A DNA stretch of 50,132 nt from NCBI GenBank assembly GCA_025360715.1, contig JANYBS010000165.1, forward strand, positions 1 through 50,132. Direction: 5' to 3'. Source of the stretch: Candidatus Eiseniibacteriota bacterium (GTDB lineage: Bacteria; Eisenbacteria; RBG-16-71-46). A program made the translations under genes and the position numbers. How positions within the stretch are numbered: position 1 is the first letter of the stretch; every line of letters starts with the position of its first letter. Shown here one piece after another: positions 2,954 to 45,686 of the stretch. The notes under the pieces are model-generated. The model did no database searches. It had not been told where the DNA came from and saw only the letters and a program-made list of their open reading frames with translations.

Positions 2954-3820
2954 ATGCCGGACATCATCCAGATCTCCCTGCGCGGAGCGCGCCGAGAGTT
3001 CTTCCTGAACTCGCGCAGCATCTGGCTGCAGATGCGTGATCGCGTGATCGTGCAAGGCGAACACGGCGAAGCATTGGGCACGGTCCATCTCAAGGACCCC
3101 ACGCTGATCGCGCTCAAGCGCCCTGGCAACGTGACGCGAGAGATCATCCGCCGCGCCGAAGAAGAGGACCTGGACCAGGACGACCACAATCGAGAGATGG
3201 AGTCCGAGGCGTTCGAGTACTGCCGCAAGCGGATCGAAGTTCGCGAGCTCAAGATGGAGCTCTCCGAAGTCGAACTCGCCTTTCGCCGCAACCGCCTCAC
3301 GTTCTTCTTCACGGCCGAGCATCGCGTGGACTTCCGCGATCTGGTCAAGGACCTGGCGGCTCGATTCCAGACGCGCATCGAGCTGCGGCAGATCGGCGTG
3401 CGTGACCAAGCCAAGCGCTTGGACGGCTGCGGTCCGTGCGGCCGCGCGTTCTGCTGCTCGACGTGGCTCAAGGGCTTCCACCCGGTCACGCTCAAGATGG
3501 CGCGCGAGCAGAGCCTGTCGCTCAACCCCGGCAAGATCTCGGGCGCGTGCGGGAGGCTCATGTGCTGCCTGTCGTACGAACTGGCGCAATACCGCGATAG
3601 CACCGCCAAGATGCCGCCCGTGGGCGCGCAGCTCAAGACCGGCAAGGGGATCTGCACGGTACTGCGTACCGATGCGTCGCAGGGCGCCGTGTGGGTGCGC
3701 GATGACGAGGGCGGCGAGCATCGCATCGCCTACGAAGACCTGCCGCCGGGCCCGTACCACAAGTGCGGCGACTGCAACTGCGGAGCCAAGCAGAAGCCCG
3801 AAGGCGGGGCAGACGCATGA
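2954..3820 (+). CDS. ricT: PSP1-domain regulatory iron-sulfur protein RicT (YaaT)
   Basis: The 288-residue sequence carries the full PSP1/RicT cysteine signature: Cys159, Cys162, Cys167 and Cys168 in CGPCGRAFCC, then the block L-N-P-G-K-I-S-G-A-C-G-R-L-M-C-C with Cys199, Cys204 and Cys205. In Bacillus RicT (YaaT) forms a complex with YlbF and YmcA that binds iron-sulfur clusters and supports RNase Y-dependent mRNA processing. The partners are not in this window. A C-terminal C-G-D-C-N-C-G tail (271-277) adds three more cysteines and may bind metal. The start at 2954 follows an AGAGGA ribosome binding site. Its position after holB is the classic neighbourhood. The stop codon overlaps the next start (ATGA), so the beta-lactamase-like gene is probably translationally coupled. 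Confidence 0.9.
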   Translation: MPDIIQISLRGARREFFLNSRSIWLQMRDRVIVQGEHGEALGTVHLKDPTLIALKRPGNVTREIIRRAEEEDLDQDDHNREMESEAFEYCRKRIEVRELKMELSEVELAFRRNRLTFFFTAEHRVDFRDLVKDLAARFQTRIELRQIGVRDQAKRLDGCGPCGRAFCCSTWLKGFHPVTLKMAREQSLSLNPGKISGACGRLMCCLSYELAQYRDSTAKMPPVGAQLKTGKGICTVLRTDASQGAVWVRDDEGGEHRIAYEDLPPGPYHKCGDCNCGAKQKPEGGADA

Positions 3821-4899
3821 TGCGCGGCATCGCGATGCGCGCGGCCTTCGTACTCCTGCTGGTGCTGGGCGCGCTGGGCGCGGCGAAGTCGCCCGGATAT
3901 CCTGCCGCGCAGCCGCCCGCTGCGGCGATCCTGCGCGACGTGAGCGATCCTGCGCTGCAGACGGCGCTCTCGCGTATCGCCGCGAGCGCGCCGGGCTACT
4001 GCGGCATCGTGGCGCGGCATCTCGAGTCCGGGCGCGTCGCGCGGGTACATGCCGTCGAGCGCATCCCCATGGCAAGCACGTTCAAGCTCGCCGTGGCGGT
4101 GACGATACTCGACGCTGCGGATCATGGGCGCACCTCCCTCACGAAGCGCGTGGCGCTGACCGCACACGACATCATTCCCGGCAGCGGCGGGCTCTCCGAC
4201 CAGTCCCCGCACGGCGGGATCACGCTCACGATCCACGACCTGCTCGATCTCATGCTCACGAGGAGCGACAACACGGCCTGCGATGCGCTCCTGCGCGAGG
4301 CGGGTGGCACGACGAGCGTGCGCCGCACGCTGTCACGCCTGCACGTGGCGGGCTTGCGTGTCGAGCGGACCGAGCTCGAACTGGGCGACGACATGTACGG
4401 CGTCGTCATGTCGCTGCCCTACGAGCAACGCACTCTCGAAGCCATCGCCAAGCAGCGTGACGCGGTGGCGCCCACGGAACGCACGACCGCCGCCGAGGCG
4501 TTCCTGCACGACCCACGTGACACCGGCAGCGCCGAGGCCTTTGCGCAGCTGCTGGCGCGGCTGTGGCGCCACGAGCTGCTCTCGAGTGCATCGACCGACA
4601 CGCTGCTTGCGATCATGCAGCGCAATCACACCGGCGATGCGCGCCTGCGCGCGGGCCTGCCGCCCGGCACGCGCGTGTACGACAAGACCGGCACCTGCGC
4701 CACATGGCGGGACCGCACGCCGAGCGTGAACGACGTGGGGATCATCCGGCTTCCCGGCAGCGGCGGCACCGTCGTCATCGCGGTGCTGGTCCGCGACGTG
4801 CACGGCCCCATCGCCGGCGCCGAACGCACGATCGCCAGCGTGGCGGGCGCGGTCCTCAAGGCGTGGAACGCGCCCGACGCCGTGCGCCAGACGCGCTGA
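3817..4899 (+). CDS. Class A beta-lactamase-like serine hydrolase, secreted
   Basis: A 360-residue protein with a hydrophobic signal peptide (about residues 1-23). The class A penicilloyl-serine hydrolase motifs are all present: S-T-F-K with nucleophile Ser87 and Lys90, S-D-N at 150-152, and K-T-G-T at 290-293. The omega loop reads R-T-E-L-E-L-G (184-190), so Glu186 corresponds to Glu166 of TEM-type enzymes, but the usual Asn170 is Gly190. A stretch of about 30 residues not found in compact class A enzymes follows the omega loop. Function is therefore a periplasmic beta-lactamase or related peptidoglycan/ester hydrolase; the Asn-to-Gly change leaves true beta-lactam turnover uncertain. Start: the ATG at 3817 overlaps the ricT stop. 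The gene converges on the ABC permease gene only 7 bp away. Confidence 0.8.
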   Translation: MMRGIAMRAAFVLLLVLGALGAAKSPGYPAAQPPAAAILRDVSDPALQTALSRIAASAPGYCGIVARHLESGRVARVHAVERIPMASTFKLAVAVTILDAADHGRTSLTKRVALTAHDIIPGSGGLSDQSPHGGITLTIHDLLDLMLTRSDNTACDALLREAGGTTSVRRTLSRLHVAGLRVERTELELGDDMYGVVMSLPYEQRTLEAIAKQRDAVAPTERTTAAEAFLHDPRDTGSAEAFAQLLARLWRHELLSSASTDTLLAIMQRNHTGDARLRAGLPPGTRVYDKTGTCATWRDRTPSVNDVGIIRLPGSGGTVVIAVLVRDVHGPIAGAERTIASVAGAVLKAWNAPDAVRQTR

Positions 4900-38748: not shown

Positions 38749-40242
38749 ATGCGTGCGTGTCTTCGGTTCGTCGCGCTGACCCTTGCCGCGATGTTCGTGG
38801 CGGGTGCGGCCGTGGCCGAGCCCCTGGGCTCCCATTGGCAGCTCTCGCCCATGGGCGGCTACACCATCTTCGACTCCCAGCTGCGCTTCCCGGGCAGCAA
38901 CCACCCGGTGCGCGACGACCTCTACATCGGCGGCCGCTTCGGCTGGCAGTCCAACTCGTGGGTCGGCCTCGAAGGCGCGGTGGGCTTCACGCCCACGGCC
39001 GAGGATGCCGTCTCGGGCGCGCGCGACTTCGACTTCACGCACTACTCGGGCAACCTCGTGCTGTCTCCCGCAAAGGGCCGCTGGGGCAATCCCTATGTGT
39101 TCGTCGGTGGCGGCTCCACCACGCTCAAGCCGTCGGTCGGCGAGAAGACCAACACCGGCACGATCGAGTTCGGCGGCGGCGTGAAGCTGTGGATGACCGA
39201 CGCCGTGGGCCTGCGCTTTGAAGCCCGCGACATCTCGTTCAAGCCGCTCAACAACTACGGTGCGCAGAGCAACGAACACAATGTGGTCATGAGCGCCGGC
39301 CTCACGTTCGCGCTGGGCGCCACGCCGCGCGACACCGACGGCGACGGCGTGCCCGATAAGAAGGACAAGTGCCCGAACACGCCCAAGGGCGCCACGGTCG
39401 ATGCGACCGGCTGCCCCAAGGACTCCGACGGCGACGGCGTGCTCGACGGCCTCGACCAGTGCCCGAACACGCCCAAGGGCGCCACGGTCGACGCCAAGGG
39501 TTGCCCCAGCGACGCCGACGGTGATGGCGTGTACGACGGCATCGACAAGTGCGCGGACACGCCCAAGGGCGCCACGGTCGATGCGACCGGTTGCCCGAAG
39601 GACTCCGACAACGACGGCGTCCTCGACGGCCTCGACAAGTGCCCGAACACGCCGGCCGGCGCAAGAATCGACAAGGACGGCTGCCCGATCGACAGCGATG
39701 GCGACGGCGTCTACGACGGCCTCGACAAGTGCCCCGATACGCCCAAGGGCCTCAAGGTCGATGCCGACGGCTGCCCGATCGTGATGATGGAGAAGGAGAC
39801 GGAGATGCTCGATACCGGGCTCATCCGCCTGAACGACATCAACTTCGAGACCAACAAGTCCGACATCCTGGCCGAATCGTTCCCGACGCTCGACGCGGTC
39901 GGTGCGCTCCTGGTGAAGTGGTCGCAGCTCAAGATGGAGATCGGCGGCCATACCGACTCGCGCGGCGGCGTGGCGAAGAACCAGAAGCTCTCGCAGATGC
40001 GCGCGGACGCGGTGAGGACGTACATCACGCAGAAGTACAGCCAGCTCGACGCCACTCAGTACACGGTCAAGGGCTACGGCAAGTCCAAGCCGATCGCGCC
40101 CAACACGACGCCGGAGAACATGGCCAAGAACCGCCGCGTCGAGTTCGTGATCCTGAACAAGGACGTGCTCAAGAAGGAAGTCGAGAAGCGTCGCATGATG
40201 CTCAAGACCGAGAGCGCGCCGGCGGATTCGACCAAGAAGTAG
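38749..40242 (+). CDS. OmpA-family protein with thrombospondin type-3 repeats (first copy)
   Basis: A 497-residue outer-membrane protein. A signal peptide (about 1-23) is followed by an eight-strand-type barrel (about 24-195). Next come five TSP3 calcium-binding repeats (about 197-345), each opening D-x-D-G-D-G-V and ending with a G-C-P, then an OmpA C-terminal peptidoglycan-binding domain (about 355-480: N-F-E-T-N-K-S-D-I, G-G-H-T-D-S-R-G, N-R-R-V-E-F-V). The TSP3 block is a rigid Ca-loaded spacer between barrel and wall-binding domain. A basic tail rich in Lys and Glu closes the protein. GAGGAG precedes the ATG. A close paralogue is encoded at 44235-45686. Confidence 0.92.
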   Translation: MRACLRFVALTLAAMFVAGAAVAEPLGSHWQLSPMGGYTIFDSQLRFPGSNHPVRDDLYIGGRFGWQSNSWVGLEGAVGFTPTAEDAVSGARDFDFTHYSGNLVLSPAKGRWGNPYVFVGGGSTTLKPSVGEKTNTGTIEFGGGVKLWMTDAVGLRFEARDISFKPLNNYGAQSNEHNVVMSAGLTFALGATPRDTDGDGVPDKKDKCPNTPKGATVDATGCPKDSDGDGVLDGLDQCPNTPKGATVDAKGCPSDADGDGVYDGIDKCADTPKGATVDATGCPKDSDNDGVLDGLDKCPNTPAGARIDKDGCPIDSDGDGVYDGLDKCPDTPKGLKVDADGCPIVMMEKETEMLDTGLIRLNDINFETNKSDILAESFPTLDAVGALLVKWSQLKMEIGGHTDSRGGVAKNQKLSQMRADAVRTYITQKYSQLDATQYTVKGYGKSKPIAPNTTPENMAKNRRVEFVILNKDVLKKEVEKRRMMLKTESAPADSTKK

Positions 40243-40263
40243 GCAGACGCTCACAGCAACAGG

Positions 40264-40295
40264 ACGGCCCGGGTCGACGCACCGACCCGGGCCGT
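40264..40295 (+). terminator. Terminator of the first OmpA-TSP3 gene
   Basis: A perfect 13-bp stem (ACGGCCCGGGTCG with its complement) and 6-nt loop lie 21 nt after the stop. Its right arm is part of the direct repeat that recurs at 40943. Confidence 0.75.
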
Positions 40296-40310
40296 TCGCT
40301 TGCCTGCGCC
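40279..40310 (+). repeat. 32-bp direct repeat, left copy
   Basis: This copy matches 40943-40974 at 31 of 32 positions (single G/A difference at position 20). It contains the right arm of the ompA terminator. The two copies flank the nucleotidyltransferase module. Confidence 0.85.
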
Positions 40311-40334
40311 GAGGCGCTATTCGCCCAGCGCCTC
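40311..40334 (-). terminator. Hairpin at the end of the nucleotidyltransferase gene
   Basis: An 8-bp stem GAGGCGCT/AGCGCCTC with 8-nt loop overlaps the minus-strand stop codon and abuts the left direct repeat. Confidence 0.45.
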
Positions 40335-40754
40335 GAGGTCGGCGAGATCACGCGGCCTGCCTACGGCGCGCTTATTCGTGCGCAGATCGGCGATCCCGAT
40401 ATATGCGCAGTCCGCATCGCCGAATCTCCCCGGCACCCTTGCTTCCCAGGCCTGCTCGAAAGTCAGGCCGGTAAGAGAGGTCAACAGGTCGACGCGGCGC
40501 GGCGGCATCCCGATCTGATAGACGACACCGGGAGTCGAAAGGTCTTCGACGGCGAGGTCCTGCAGCGGCGCACCGAATCGCTGCAGCGCGAGCCAGACAC
40601 GCGATGCGTTCTCGGGTGACGGATCGACCCACAGATCGAGATCCCCCGTCGATCGGGGTTGGCTGTGAAACGTGACCGCGTAAGCCCCGACGATCAGGAA
40701 CCGGGCATCAGCGTCGGATAACGCGCTCAACAGATCGGTGAAGTCGGGGTTCAC
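40317..40754 (-). CDS. Nucleotidyltransferase-fold protein, putative toxin-antitoxin component
   Basis: A 145-residue protein (GTG start) with a minimal nucleotidyltransferase signature: F-L-I-V-G-A-Y-A-V followed by S-T-G-D-L-D-L-W-V, in which the two Asp would hold the metal. The rest (R-R-V-D-L-L-T-S-L-T-G, I-G-I-A-D-L-R-T-N-K-R-A) fits the family of small proteins related to AbiEii/MNT and DUF6036. The usual GS motif is G-A-Y. It is the second gene of a two-gene unit inside a 32-bp direct repeat, so a mobile toxin-antitoxin-like or defence module is likely. The preceding small gene overlaps it by about 46 bp. A TTG at 40787 would add 11 residues; AAAGGA before the GTG favours 40754. Confidence 0.65.
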   Translation of the reverse strand: MNPDFTDLLSALSDADARFLIVGAYAVTFHSQPRSTGDLDLWVDPSPENASRVWLALQRFGAPLQDLAVEDLSTPGVVYQIGMPPRRVDLLTSLTGLTFEQAWEARVPGRFGDADCAYIGIADLRTNKRAVGRPRDLADLEALGE

Positions 40755-40920
40755 CTGTCGGCCATCCTTTGAGCTGCCAAAGTTCAAGGCTCAAGCGCCA
40801 AGCGGTCTCGACGCGCTCGGCGGGCGGCACTGCCGACCAGAACTCACGGTCGGAACGCTGCTCCTCTGCACCCATCCTCACGCGGCGCACCGTGACGCCG
40901 GGCCGTAGCGGAGATTCCAT
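40708..40920 (-). CDS. Small protein paired with the nucleotidyltransferase
   Basis: A 70-residue charged protein with no signal or membrane segment. It carries the phrases V-R-R-V-R-M-G, R-E-F-W, P-P-A-E-R-V-E and W-R-L-S-L-E-L-W. I recognise it only as a type that recurs just upstream of small nucleotidyltransferases, so it is probably the partner (antitoxin-like) of that protein. A TACAAT box preceded by TGC lies 6 nt before the ATG at 40920, giving a leaderless promoter that fixes this start rather than an in-frame ATG at 40941. Confidence 0.55.
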   Translation of the reverse strand: MESPLRPGVTVRRVRMGAEEQRSDREFWSAVPPAERVETAWRLSLELWQLKGWPTGEPRLHRSVERVIRR

Positions 40921-40926
40921 CCCTTG

Positions 40927-40932
40927 ATTGTA
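40927..40932 (-). promoter_or_regulatory. Putative extended -10 promoter of the nucleotidyltransferase module
   Basis: On the minus strand TGCTACAAT is a near-consensus extended -10, with the ATG only 6 nt downstream. It lies inside the segment bounded by the direct repeats, so the module carries its own promoter. Confidence 0.55.
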
Positions 40933-40942
40933 GCACGGCACC

Positions 40943-40974
40943 GCACCGACCCGGGCCGTTCACTTGCCTGCGCC
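40943..40974 (+). repeat. 32-bp direct repeat, right copy
   Basis: Second copy of the repeat at 40279-40310. Here the right arm of the terminator is present without its left arm, so this copy cannot form the original hairpin. Confidence 0.85.
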
Positions 40975-41039
40975 CGCGCGCTGCGGCAGGCTGCGCCGCG
41001 TCTGGAACACGCGCCCGACCAAGCTCGAAGGATGGCCCC

Positions 41040-41786
41040 GTGTCGATCGATGGTGAAGAGGATCTGCAGGGCCTGCTGGCGGCGGGGCGCGCGGTGCGCG
41101 CGGCGCTCGAGGCCATGCGCGCCGCGGTGCGCAGCGGCATCACGACGGCGGAGCTCGATCGCATCGGCGAGACCGCGCTGCGCCTGCATGGTGCGCGCTC
41201 GGCGCCGAAGCTCGTGTACGACTTCCCGGGCGCGAACTGCATCAGCGTGAACGATGAGATCGTGCACGGCATCCCGTCGCGCAAGCGGGTGCTTGCGGAC
41301 GGCGACCTCGTGAAGCTCGACGTGACCGCCGAACTCGCCGGCTACATGGCCGACGCAGCCATAACGGTGCCCGTGGGCGTGATCCCGGCCCGCGCGCAGA
41401 AACTCATCGATTGTGCCGAGCAGGCGTTCCACCGCGCGATGCGCGAGGTCCGCCCGGGCAAGCGCGCGTTCGAGGTGGGCCGCGTGATCGAGGACTTCGT
41501 GCGCGAACAGGGCTTCTCGGTCGTGCCCGTGCTGCAGGGCCATGGCATCGGCCGCACGATCCACGAAGAGCCCATGATGCCGAACTGGCCCGACCCCAAC
41601 GCGCGCGGCTGGCTTACCGATGGGCTGGTGATCACGGTGGAGCCCATCATCACGATGGGATCGGGCGATAGCTATGAAGCCGACGATGGCTGGACGATCA
41701 AGTCCACCGATGGCTCGCTGGCCGCGCACTTCGAGCACACGCTCGTCGTGCGCAACGGCCAGCCGTTGTTGCTCACCGCGGCGTAG
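41040..41786 (+). CDS. map: Methionine aminopeptidase, type I
   Basis: A 248-residue metalloprotease that removes the initiator Met. The five metal ligands are in place: Asp of L-V-K-L-D-V, Asp of Y-M-A-D-A-A, His of G-H-G-I-G-R-T-I-H, Glu of I-T-V-E-P-I and Glu of H-F-E-H-T. The substrate His of I-V-H-G-I-P is also conserved. There is no N-terminal zinc or SH3 extension. The start is GTG at 41040, with AAGGATGG just upstream. In many bacteria map lies in the ribosomal spc operon; here it stands alone after an inserted module. Confidence 0.93.
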   Translation: MSIDGEEDLQGLLAAGRAVRAALEAMRAAVRSGITTAELDRIGETALRLHGARSAPKLVYDFPGANCISVNDEIVHGIPSRKRVLADGDLVKLDVTAELAGYMADAAITVPVGVIPARAQKLIDCAEQAFHRAMREVRPGKRAFEVGRVIEDFVREQGFSVVPVLQGHGIGRTIHEEPMMPNWPDPNARGWLTDGLVITVEPIITMGSGDSYEADDGWTIKSTDGSLAAHFEHTLVVRNGQPLLLTAA

Positions 41787-43022: not shown

Positions 43023-43963
43023 TCGCGCAGGTCCTTTCCGGTGAGCGCCAGGAACACGCTCTGCAAGGTGGCGCCGCGGACTTCAAGGTCGCGCACGGCG
43101 AGCTTCTGCTGTTGGAGCGCCGCGAGCAGCGCGGGCAGCTCAGCGGTGACATCGTTCACGGTGGCCGTGAGCGCGAGCCCGCCTGGCTCGAGCGTGAAGC
43201 CCGCTGGCGCGCGACTGGCGGCCTGCGCCAGGTCCACGCGCACGCGCTGTCCCGCAAGCCCGGCGCGCTGGATCATCTCGGGCAGCGTGCCGCTGGCGAT
43301 CGCCTCGCCGTGGTCGATCACCACGATGCGATCGGCGCGGCCCTCGGCTTCCTCCAACTGGTGCGTGGTCAGCAGCAGCGCCGAGCCTTGGGCGCGCAAG
43401 CCGCCGAGCATGTCGTGGATGCGCTCGCGGCTCTGCGGGTCGACGCCCACGGTCGGCTCATCGAGCAACACGACCTTGGGCTCGTGAAGCACGCCGCACG
43501 CCAGGTTGAGCCGCCGCTTCATGCCGCCCGAGTAGCCCGCGACCGGCTCCTTGGCGCGGTCGATGAGCCCGGTCCATTCAAGCGCCCACGCCGTGCGCTC
43601 GCGCAGGCGCTTACCCGAAAGGCCATGCAGCTGCCCGAACAACTCCAGGTTCTCGCGCGCGGTGAGCAGGCCATAGAGCGCCAACTCCTGCGGCACCACG
43701 CCAAGCCCTTCGCGCACGGCGCCGGGGACCAGCACCTTGCCGAACAGGCTGATGCGGCCGGAATCGAGCCGTACGCGGCCGGCGAGCGCGCGGATGAGCG
43801 TGGTCTTGCCGGCGCCGTTGGGCCCGAGCAGCGCGAGCATCTCGCCCTCGCGCAGGTCGAACGAGAGCCCGCGCAGCGCCGCCGTAGCGCCGAACGTCTT
43901 GCGGGCATCCTGGACCTCGAGGACTGCGGGTCGTGTGGTGGTCGTTGCCATGCTGACTGCCAT
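43019..43963 (-). CDS. ABC transporter ATP-binding protein (exporter)
   Basis: A 314-residue ATPase subunit. Walker A is G-P-N-G-A-G-K-T-T, the signature is Y-S-G-G-M-K-R-R-L, Walker B runs [12 protein letters not shown], and the H-loop is T-T-H-Q-L-E-E-A-E. The C-terminal ~90 residues form the extra domain of DrrA/YbhF-like exporters. GGAGGG precedes the ATG at 43963; a second Met four codons later is an alternative. It works with the permease encoded immediately downstream. Confidence 0.9.
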
Positions 43964-44234
43964 ATTCCCTCCGGTCGGCGGGGGCGGCCATCGCCCTGTG
44001 CCGCGTGACACAAGAGAGAATCGCCGCTCGCGCCAGCGCCGGATAGAGCGAGGCGGCGAATGGTCGTTCCGGGGCGGCGAACGGTCATGGTGGGCGGCTG
44101 GCGGGGGCCGGCGCCCGTGCCGGGTCCGCGCCCGGTTGCCGCTCCGCCGCGTTCGTCCTATCGTCCCGGCACTGCTTCGCGCACCTCGCACGACACCGAT
44201 GTCCTGCTCCCATGGCCCACAGGAGGTGGCCCGT
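43964..44234. promoter_or_regulatory. Divergent promoter region between the ABC exporter and second OmpA gene
   Basis: The 271-bp gap separates divergent genes and must hold both promoters. CCTATCGTCC near 44157-44166 could be the -10 for ompA, giving a leader of about 65 nt that ends with a strong AGGAGGT ribosome binding site. I see no small gene. Confidence 0.35.
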
Positions 44235-45686
44235 ATGCGCATGCGATCCCTTACCCCGTTCCTGCTGTTCGCGGCACTCCTCATCCCGAGTGCTCCGGCG
44301 CACGCCGCCCCCGAAGGCTCGTACCGCTGGGTCACGCCGGTCGTCGGCTGGGCGAAGTTCTCCGACCGCCTCCTCTATCCGGCGGACTCCCTCAAGGACG
44401 CGCCGCTCTTCGGGCTGCGTATCGGCCGTTCGTTCCAGGAGAACTGGGCGCTCGAGCTGGCCGGCGCGTATTCGCCCACGAAGGAAGCCGCGTATCCCGA
44501 CCGCGACGTCACCTACATGAACGGTTCGCTGAACCTCATGTACACGCCGGCGCGCTGGAAGGCCGGCGACCTGTACTTCGCCGCCGGCGCCGGCTACTCG
44601 CGCCGCAAGGCGAAAGACTTCACCGACCTTCATGCCGGCACGTTCGAGCAGGCGATCGGCTGGCGCTCGTGGTGGAATGACCACTCCGGCATCCGCCTCG
44701 AGGCGCGCAACAGCCTCAACATGGCGAACCATCGCTGGGAGCGCTCCGACAAGAGCGACCTGCACTTCCTGGCCGGCCTCGACTTCGTGTTCGGCGGCAA
44801 GCCCAAGGATACCGATGGCGACGGCGTGCCGGACAAGAAGGACAAGTGCCCGAACACGCCCACGGGTGCCAAGGTCGATGCGACCGGCTGCCCGACCGAC
44901 GCCGATGGTGATGGCGTGTGGGATGGCCTCGACAAGTGCCCCGACACGCCTAAGGGCGCGACCGTCGACGCGACGGGTTGCCCCAAGGATTCGGACGGAG
45001 ATGGCGTGTATGACGGCCTCGACCAGTGCGGGAACACCCCCAAGGGCGCGATGGTCGATGCAAAGGGTTGCCCGACCGACAGCGACGGTGACGGCGTGTG
45101 GGACGGTCTCGACAAGTGCCCGAATACACCCAAGGGCGCCAAGGTCGATGCCGACGGTTGCCCCACCGACGCCGACGGCGACGGCGTCTTCGACGGTCTC
45201 GACAAGTGCCCCGACACGCCCAAGGGCGCCAAGGTCGATGCCGACGGCTGCCCGATCGTGGTCACGGAGAAGGAGACGGAGCTGCTCGACACGGGCATGA
45301 TCCGGCTGCAGAACGTGAACTTCGAGACGGGCAAGAGCGACCTGCTTCCCGAATCCAAGCCGATCCTCGATGACATCGGTCCGATCCTGCGCAAGTGGCC
45401 GCAGTTGCAGATCGAGGTCGGTGGCCACACCGACTCGCGCGGCACGCAGGCCAAGAACCAAGCGCTCTCCGAGGCGCGTGCGAAGGCCGTGCGGGACTAC
45501 CTCACGCAGAAGTTCCCCGACATCGTCGCGAGCCAGCTCACGTCGAAGGGCTATGGCGAGAGCAGGCCGATCGCTCCGAACAAGGGTGCGGCGAACATGG
45601 CGAAGAACCGCCGCGTCGAGTTCGTGGTGCTCAACAAGGACGTGCTCAAAAAGGAAGTCGAGAAGCGCAAGCTGCTCCAGAAGTAG
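44235..45686 (+). CDS. OmpA-family protein with thrombospondin type-3 repeats (second copy)
   Basis: A 483-residue paralogue of the protein at 38749-40242 with the same order: signal peptide (about 1-25), barrel (about 26-190), five TSP3 repeats (about 194-345), and OmpA peptidoglycan-binding domain (N-F-E-T-G-K-S-D-L, G-G-H-T-D-S-R-G, N-R-R-V-E-F-V). The TSP3 and OmpA parts are very similar between the copies, while the barrels differ strongly, so the two should present different surfaces on the same calcium-stiffened anchor. It has a strong AGGAGGT ribosome binding site and its own terminator. Confidence 0.92.
   Translation: MRMRSLTPFLLFAALLIPSAPAHAAPEGSYRWVTPVVGWAKFSDRLLYPADSLKDAPLFGLRIGRSFQENWALELAGAYSPTKEAAYPDRDVTYMNGSLNLMYTPARWKAGDLYFAAGAGYSRRKAKDFTDLHAGTFEQAIGWRSWWNDHSGIRLEARNSLNMANHRWERSDKSDLHFLAGLDFVFGGKPKDTDGDGVPDKKDKCPNTPTGAKVDATGCPTDADGDGVWDGLDKCPDTPKGATVDATGCPKDSDGDGVYDGLDQCGNTPKGAMVDAKGCPTDSDGDGVWDGLDKCPNTPKGAKVDADGCPTDADGDGVFDGLDKCPDTPKGAKVDADGCPIVVTEKETELLDTGMIRLQNVNFETGKSDLLPESKPILDDIGPILRKWPQLQIEVGGHTDSRGTQAKNQALSEARAKAVRDYLTQKFPDIVASQLTSKGYGESRPIAPNKGAANMAKNRRVEFVVLNKDVLKKEVEKRKLLQK

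What the first reader, a model, noticed from the sequence alone, without database searches (positions are those of the whole stretch)
40279..40974. Nucleotidyltransferase two-gene module inserted in a terminator, flanked by a 32-bp direct repeat
The copies at 40279-40310 and 40943-40974 agree at 31 of 32 bases. Between them lie about 630 bp holding two minus-strand genes, their own extended -10 promoter and a hairpin. The left copy still forms the ompA terminator with its upstream arm; the right copy has only the right arm. The uninterrupted ancestor would be ompA-terminator-map. This looks like a compact toxin-antitoxin or defence cassette that arrived by duplicating its target, and no transposase or integrase is present.
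Basis: partly seen in the sequence, partly recalled or inferred. Interest (0 to 1): 0.6.

Follow-up and report, generated by a model that had tools for sequence, protein, structure and literature searches.

The report
Tiny toxin-like cassette with duplicated target
A 630-base pair of overlapping genes that looks like a tRNA-attacking toxin and its antidote has been inserted cleanly between two ordinary genes, duplicating 33 bases of the target; sister cassettes elsewhere do the same at gene ends, carrying a copy of the neighbour's tail, with no recombinase of their own.

Summary
A 33-bp direct repeat (32/33; 40278-40310 and 40942-40974) flanks a 631-bp minus-strand two-gene cassette between the ompA hairpin and the map promoter. 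The repeat core occurs nowhere else in the genome as a pair, and the right copy holds the -35 box of a map promoter conserved in relatives. Three relatives have an ompA-map interval with no insert; three congeners carry a different gene there. The cassette is a conserved pair: a ~70-aa helical protein overlapping a 145-aa nucleotidyltransferase whose predicted fold is closest to the M. tuberculosis toxin MenT1. Of 141 related modules in Eisenbacteria and Acidobacteriota, about eight carry target-type duplications, most of them copies of the 3' end of the neighbouring gene (cytochrome c, guaA, cbbQ, acyl-CoA dehydrogenase). Some loci are arrays in which toxin-antitoxin-like cassettes of different families are separated by such copies, and the copies differ mostly by synonymous changes, as if brought from another species' intact gene. 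Relatives show empty or differently filled sites.

The parts
38749..40242 (+). ompA-like gene (TSP3 repeats + OmpA C-terminal domain), upstream neighbour
   Evidence: ORF; syntenic with map in L032-L037
40262..40297 (+). hairpin after ompA (terminator-like, no T-run); arms 40262-40276 and 40283-40297
   Evidence: -39.3 kcal/mol, z -6.7; GC-rich hairpins also follow ompA in congeners
40278..40310 (.). left copy of the 33-bp direct repeat (loop + right arm of hairpin + 13 bp)
40317..40754 (-). nucleotidyltransferase, 145 aa, MenT1/AbiEii-like; putative toxin
40708..40920 (-). 70-aa small helical partner, putative antitoxin; overlaps the nucleotidyltransferase gene by 47 nt
   Evidence: partner found in 90 of 92 modules; three helices, low-confidence model
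40927..40935 (-). extended -10 element TGCTACAAT, 6 nt before the start codon
   Evidence: sequence; similar extended -10 at the same place in L002-L006, L008, L009, L013
40942..40974 (.). right copy of the direct repeat; includes the -35 of the map promoter
40964..40992 (+). map promoter TTGCCT-N17-CAGGCT (-35 inside right repeat copy)
   Evidence: TTGC-N17/18-nAnnCT upstream of map in 6 of 7 genomes
41040..41786 (+). map, type I methionine aminopeptidase, downstream neighbour
   Evidence: ORF, homologues in 57 of 59 genomes

Best explanation
The module is a horizontally acquired, compact two-gene cassette encoding a MenAT1-like toxin-antitoxin pair: a nucleotidyltransferase that probably modifies tRNA or another nucleic acid, and a small helical antidote made first from an overlapping, leaderless transcript. 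It was inserted between ompA and map by a recombination event that duplicated 33 bp of target, so that ompA kept its hairpin and map kept its promoter. In related bacteria the same kind of cassette sits at the ends of genes and is followed or preceded by a copy of that gene's 3' end, often from another lineage. The mobile unit is therefore probably 'cassette plus copy of the gene end', integrating by recombination at that end (a recombinase acting in trans, or homologous recombination through the copied end). Shown: repeat, gene pair, empty intervals, parallel duplications, arrays. Inferred: toxicity, circular or linear intermediate, which enzyme.
For: Window repeat and anatomy. Empty intervals in G003, G019 and G012. 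Small partner in 90 of 92 modules. Fold nearest to MenT1/MenAT1, E 4e-4. 3'-end duplications: L004 cytochrome c, L130 guaA, L118 acyl-CoA dehydrogenase with three copies separating a PIN-type and this cassette, L106 phytoene-desaturase-like gene, L136 cbbQ, L299 acyl-CoA dehydrogenase again with three copies. Copies differ by 23 synonymous against 5 non-synonymous codons. At the dehydrogenase site three different cassettes in two species join the copy at the same base +-1, right after their stop codon. Relatives with empty or differently filled sites: G101 at the dehydrogenase locus; G236 and G469 at cbbQ, with PIN or nucleotidyltransferase cassettes in others. Control: only one such locus in 400 kb of G423.
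Against: About 130 of 141 modules show no long flanking repeat. The window's duplicated segment is a hairpin/promoter region, not a coding end, so placing it with the coding-end cases rests on anatomy (X - cassette - copy - next gene). Neutral decay of a within-genome duplicate would also leave some synonymous bias, because the native copy stays under selection. No toxicity data. The small protein has no detectable sequence match to MenA1.
Confidence: 0.66

Rival explanations
1. Homology-assisted transfer without any cassette machinery: a donor fragment bearing the end of the homologous gene plus the toxin-antitoxin pair was joined downstream by homologous recombination on one side and end-joining on the other, so the copied gene end is hitch-hiking flank.
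For: Copies look like gene ends of other lineages. In G101 the nucleotidyltransferase lies directly behind cbbQ, matching the order copy-module in L136. No shared recombinase found.
Against: In the window and in L004, L130 and L299 the copy lies beyond the cassette, not before it. Identical junctions for three cassettes at the dehydrogenase site argue against random breakage.
Confidence: 0.3
2. Ordinary cassettes of an integron or of a tyrosine-recombinase island mobilised in trans, the repeats being attachment sites.
For: A related module in L105 is flanked by attC-like sites (GCCTAAC...GTTAGG). guaA 3' ends are known island sites (own knowledge). Five tyrosine recombinase genes lie elsewhere in the genome.
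Against: The window repeat has no attC core (GTTRRRY) and the repeats differ between loci, each being the local target, which one integrase would not recognise.
Confidence: 0.2
3. The repeat is a local tandem duplication around an old resident module, unrelated to its arrival.
For: Many modules have no repeat.
Against: Relatives have the interval without the module or with another gene; parallel cases at unrelated loci and no comparable repeat in control windows.
Confidence: 0.07
4. Assembly artefact of a metagenome-assembled genome.
For: The window is a whole contig of a 253-contig assembly.
Against: 33 bp is shorter than usual assembly k-mers, both neighbours stay intact, and independent genomes show the same pattern.
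Confidence: 0.02

Closest known systems
MenAT1 toxin-antitoxin system of M. tuberculosis (PMC10435456)
   Same: Nucleotidyltransferase with a small (68-aa) partner encoded upstream; nearest solved fold; invariant T36, D38, D40 and K128 recall MenT1 T39, D41 and K137.
   Different: Toxin about 50 aa shorter; small protein not recognisably homologous to MenA1 by sequence; activity untested.
AbiEii / DUF6036 nucleotidyltransferases (Pfam PF08843, PF19502)
   Same: Weak profile matches in 8-10 of 14 members; PADLOC AbiEii E 0.0012.
   Different: The window protein itself gives no Pfam match; no AbiEi-type partner.
Integron gene cassettes
   Same: Small cassettes, each with a recombination-site-like repeat, sometimes in arrays; one related module is in attC-like sites (L105).
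   Different: No attC in the window; the repeat is a copy of the local target or gene end.
Genomic islands integrating at gene 3' ends (tRNA, guaA)
   Same: Neighbour gene end duplicated and regenerated; tandem insertions at one site.
   Different: About 0.6 kb, no integrase, many different target genes.
pdif modules (XerCD-mobilised resistance and toxin-antitoxin modules; own knowledge)
   Same: Recombinase-less toxin-antitoxin modules between ~28-bp sites.
   Different: Repeats here are not a shared dif sequence.

Membership tests
MenAT-type nucleotidyltransferase toxin-antitoxin system | Nucleotidyltransferase fold of MenT type | tested here: met
   AF2 model pLDDT 88.6; top five PDB hits all MenT1/MenAT1, best E 3.8e-4, TM 0.65; profile hit 8an4 E 6e-5
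MenAT-type nucleotidyltransferase toxin-antitoxin system | Active-site residues (MenT1 T39, D41, K137, D152) | tested here: met
   T36, D38, D40, K128, D136 and D139 invariant in 14 sequences; correspondence judged by motif, not by superposition
MenAT-type nucleotidyltransferase toxin-antitoxin system | Small antitoxin gene directly upstream in an operon | tested here: met
   90 of 92 modules have the small gene, overlap mostly 47-53 nt; that it is an antitoxin is inferred
MenAT-type nucleotidyltransferase toxin-antitoxin system | Antitoxin homologous to MenA1 | tested here: inconclusive
   No MenA1 hit with the small-protein profile; both are short and helical; model low confidence
MenAT-type nucleotidyltransferase toxin-antitoxin system | Toxicity blocked by the partner | not testable with these tools
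   Needs expression
Integron gene cassette | attC site with R' and R'' cores | tested here: not met
   No GTTRRRY/RYYYAAC core in either window copy (sequence)
Integrative island at gene 3' end | Duplicated gene end at both junctions | tested here: met
   Coding ends in L004, L118, L130, L136, L299; in the window it is the hairpin/promoter region
Integrative island at gene 3' end | Integrase encoded in the element | tested here: not met
   631-bp insert fully accounted for by two genes; no PF00589 in the window
IS/transposon | Terminal inverted repeats and transposase | tested here: not met
   No inverted repeats at the cassette ends; no transposase gene inside

The most novel reading that the evidence does not exclude
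A new class of recombinase-less mobile cassette in which a toxin-antitoxin pair is coupled to a copy of a host gene's 3' end; that copy is the recombination site, lets the cassette home to the same gene in other species and builds integron-like arrays of unrelated toxin-antitoxin families at ordinary housekeeping genes.
Probability: 0.35. Interest if true: 0.82.

Novelty: new variant of a known kind. Interest (0 to 1): 0.62.

Why it matters
How chromosomal toxin-antitoxin pairs spread between bacteria without transposases is an old question. Junctions that carry another species' gene tail are a readable fossil of each transfer, give dateable empty and filled sites, and name concrete loci (cbbQ, acyl-CoA dehydrogenase, guaA, ompA-map) where the mechanism can be tested.

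Tried and rejected
(1) Dispersed REP-like repeat: rejected for the window, only two copies in the genome. (2) Integron cassette: rejected for the window, no attC core; true of L105, and L116 looks alike. (3) dif-like Xer site: the stretch after the L118 copies resembles a dif arm but is too short and is better read as hairpin plus promoter. (4) The DUF2892-like gene in congeners G001, G002 and G004 as a second cassette with repeats: no direct repeat found. (5) L089, L104, L115 and L268: long repeats, left unclassified, not counted. (6) L305: 26-bp repeat of the 5' part of a fabG-like gene, not a 3' end; left open. (7) Pfam and NCBIfam on the window proteins: nothing. (8) Empty cytochrome c site: relatives G006 and G007 lack the module but are too diverged to align. 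(9) Paper searches found no description of gene-end-copy cassettes; only a remark on direct repeats as recombination scars around a mycoplasma toxin-antitoxin pair (PMC8562856). The library lacks most subscription journals.

Full report
OBSERVATION. The repeat is real: 40278-40310 and 40942-40974 agree at 32 of 33 bases, 664 bp apart. The core is found twice in the 4.29-Mb genome, besides the opposite hairpin arm and one unrelated site with a mismatch. The same repeat test gives 30 here against at most 13 in mismatched flank pairs and no real hit in 211 control windows of the same geometry. The left copy makes a very stable hairpin with its upstream arm, the right copy does not.

NEIGHBOURS. 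Ahead of map, six of seven genomes have TTGC-N17/18-nAnnCT. In the window the TTGCCT lies at 40964-40969, inside the right copy. So the duplication left the ompA hairpin whole on one side and the map promoter whole on the other. The interval ompA-map is about 77-193 bp without an insert in G012, G019 and G003. In congeners G001, G002 and G004 it holds a different minus-strand gene, a ~70-aa membrane protein of DUF2892 look (named from memory), without repeats. The genome is from a Candidatus Eisenbacteria lineage (record titles of congeners L061 and L062).

THE PAIR. The larger protein (145 aa) has V-G-A-Y-A and P-R-x-T-x-D-x-D motifs, with K128 and D136 invariant. Its own Pfam and NCBIfam scans are empty, but relatives match AbiEii and DUF6036 weakly. 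The profile finds MenT1 (8an4, E 6e-5), and the predicted structure (pLDDT 88.6) has MenT1 and MenAT1 as its five best PDB matches. The MenA1 antitoxin is a 68-aa protein encoded upstream of menT1 (PMC10435456). Here a ~70-aa helical protein is encoded upstream, overlapping by 47 nt. It is present in 90 of 92 modules, with an extended -10 about 6-9 nt ahead of the start codon in most of those inspected. That it is an antitoxin is inference from organisation; sequence homology to MenA1 was not detected.

PARALLEL INSERTIONS. Searches of 59 relatives and related phyla gave 141 distinct modules. The following carry target-type duplications (coordinates in the calls). L004 (G009): 38 bp, end of a cytochrome c gene, peptide DPGPVGPTEKKS-stop against DPGPMGPTEKKS-stop. 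L130 (G290): 29 bp, end of guaA. L106: 29 bp near the end of a phytoene-desaturase-like gene, module convergent as in the window. L118 (G423): three copies of the last 60-75 bp of an acyl-CoA dehydrogenase gene, with an antitoxin-PIN pair between the first and second and this module between the second and third. L136 (G204): end of cbbQ copied between a first cassette and this module. L299 (G497): three copies of the acyl-CoA dehydrogenase end, with this module and a further gene between them. L302: cbbQ, with a weaker copy. With the window this is about eight of 141. In the aligned coding copies 23 codon differences are synonymous (stops included) and 5 are not, against 23% expected at random; AGT to TCG (serine) in L136 is telling. 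A part of this bias is expected anyway because the native copy is under selection, and pairs within L118 are not independent.

EMPTY AND REFILLED SITES. In G101 the dehydrogenase is followed by the PIN pair and then the acetyltransferase, without this module and without copies. The end of cbbQ is a hotspot: empty in G236 and G469 (next gene a monooxygenase-like gene); this module in G468, G474, G101 and G471; a PIN pair in G220, G473 and G290, where G290 has a decayed cbbQ end between two PIN-type pairs and G473 a short remnant ahead of this module. At the dehydrogenase site three junctions in two species, with three different cassettes, begin the copy at the same base +-1, directly after the cassette's stop codon. 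In 400 kb of G423 no other gene-end duplication was seen; the rest were dispersed repeats and an attC-like array.

MECHANISM. The common order is gene X - cassette - copy of the end of X - next gene, with cassettes able to accumulate. This is what integration of a unit 'cassette + end of X' into the end of X would give. The recombinase is not in the cassette. Either an enzyme acts in trans or recombination uses the copied end as homology; fixed junctions favour a defined site but could be inherited once a first copy exists. In the window the copied stretch is the hairpin and the map -35 region, so it fits by order, not by coding sequence. The rival, transfer of a donor fragment with a hitch-hiking gene end, remains possible, chiefly for L136.

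VERDICT. Observation confirmed; insertion with target duplication very likely (about 0.9); toxin-antitoxin pair likely (about 0.75); one common process with the gene-end arrays plausible (about 0.5). The protein pair is a new member near MenAT/AbiEii. The insertion mode looks like a new variant of island- or integron-like accretion. A literature library of open papers showed no description, but most subscription journals are not held.

Noticed in passing
ompA-map interval in L032, L035, L036 (congeners G004, G002, G001): A different minus-strand gene (~70-aa DUF2892-like membrane protein) lies between the ompA hairpin and the map promoter, where the window has the cassette; no flanking repeats.
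   Followed up: partly
L160-L161 (G423:C15, about 93-104 kb): Repeats of about 100 bp every 0.4-1.2 kb that look like an attC (integron cassette) array.
   Followed up: no
L105 1173-1295 and 1959-2081 (module orientation): A related module sits between attC-like sites (GCCTAAC...GTTAGG), so this gene family also travels as integron cassettes.
   Followed up: partly
L227 (G434), downstream of cbbQ: A gene that looks like a Y1/REP-associated transposase lies directly behind the cbbQ hotspot instead of a toxin-antitoxin pair.
   Followed up: no
L150, around 933-1401 and 3482-3950: A stretch of more than 450 bp seems directly repeated 2.55 kb apart on both sides of a related module.
   Followed up: no
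L305 2570-2595 and 3502-3527 (module orientation): 25/26-bp repeat of the 5' coding part of a fabG-like gene flanks a related module; a gene start rather than an end.
   Followed up: partly
window 43737-45686, + strand (ORF): A second OmpA-like gene with calcium-binding repeats, a paralogue of the one at 38749-40242.
   Followed up: no
window 31248 and 33738: A 33-mer repeated at 32/33 identity 2.5 kb apart, nature unknown.
   Followed up: no
L004 1451-1495 and 2139-2183: The two copies keep a short hairpin through a paired C-to-G/G-to-C change; the predicted stems are not more stable than shuffled sequence.
   Followed up: partly
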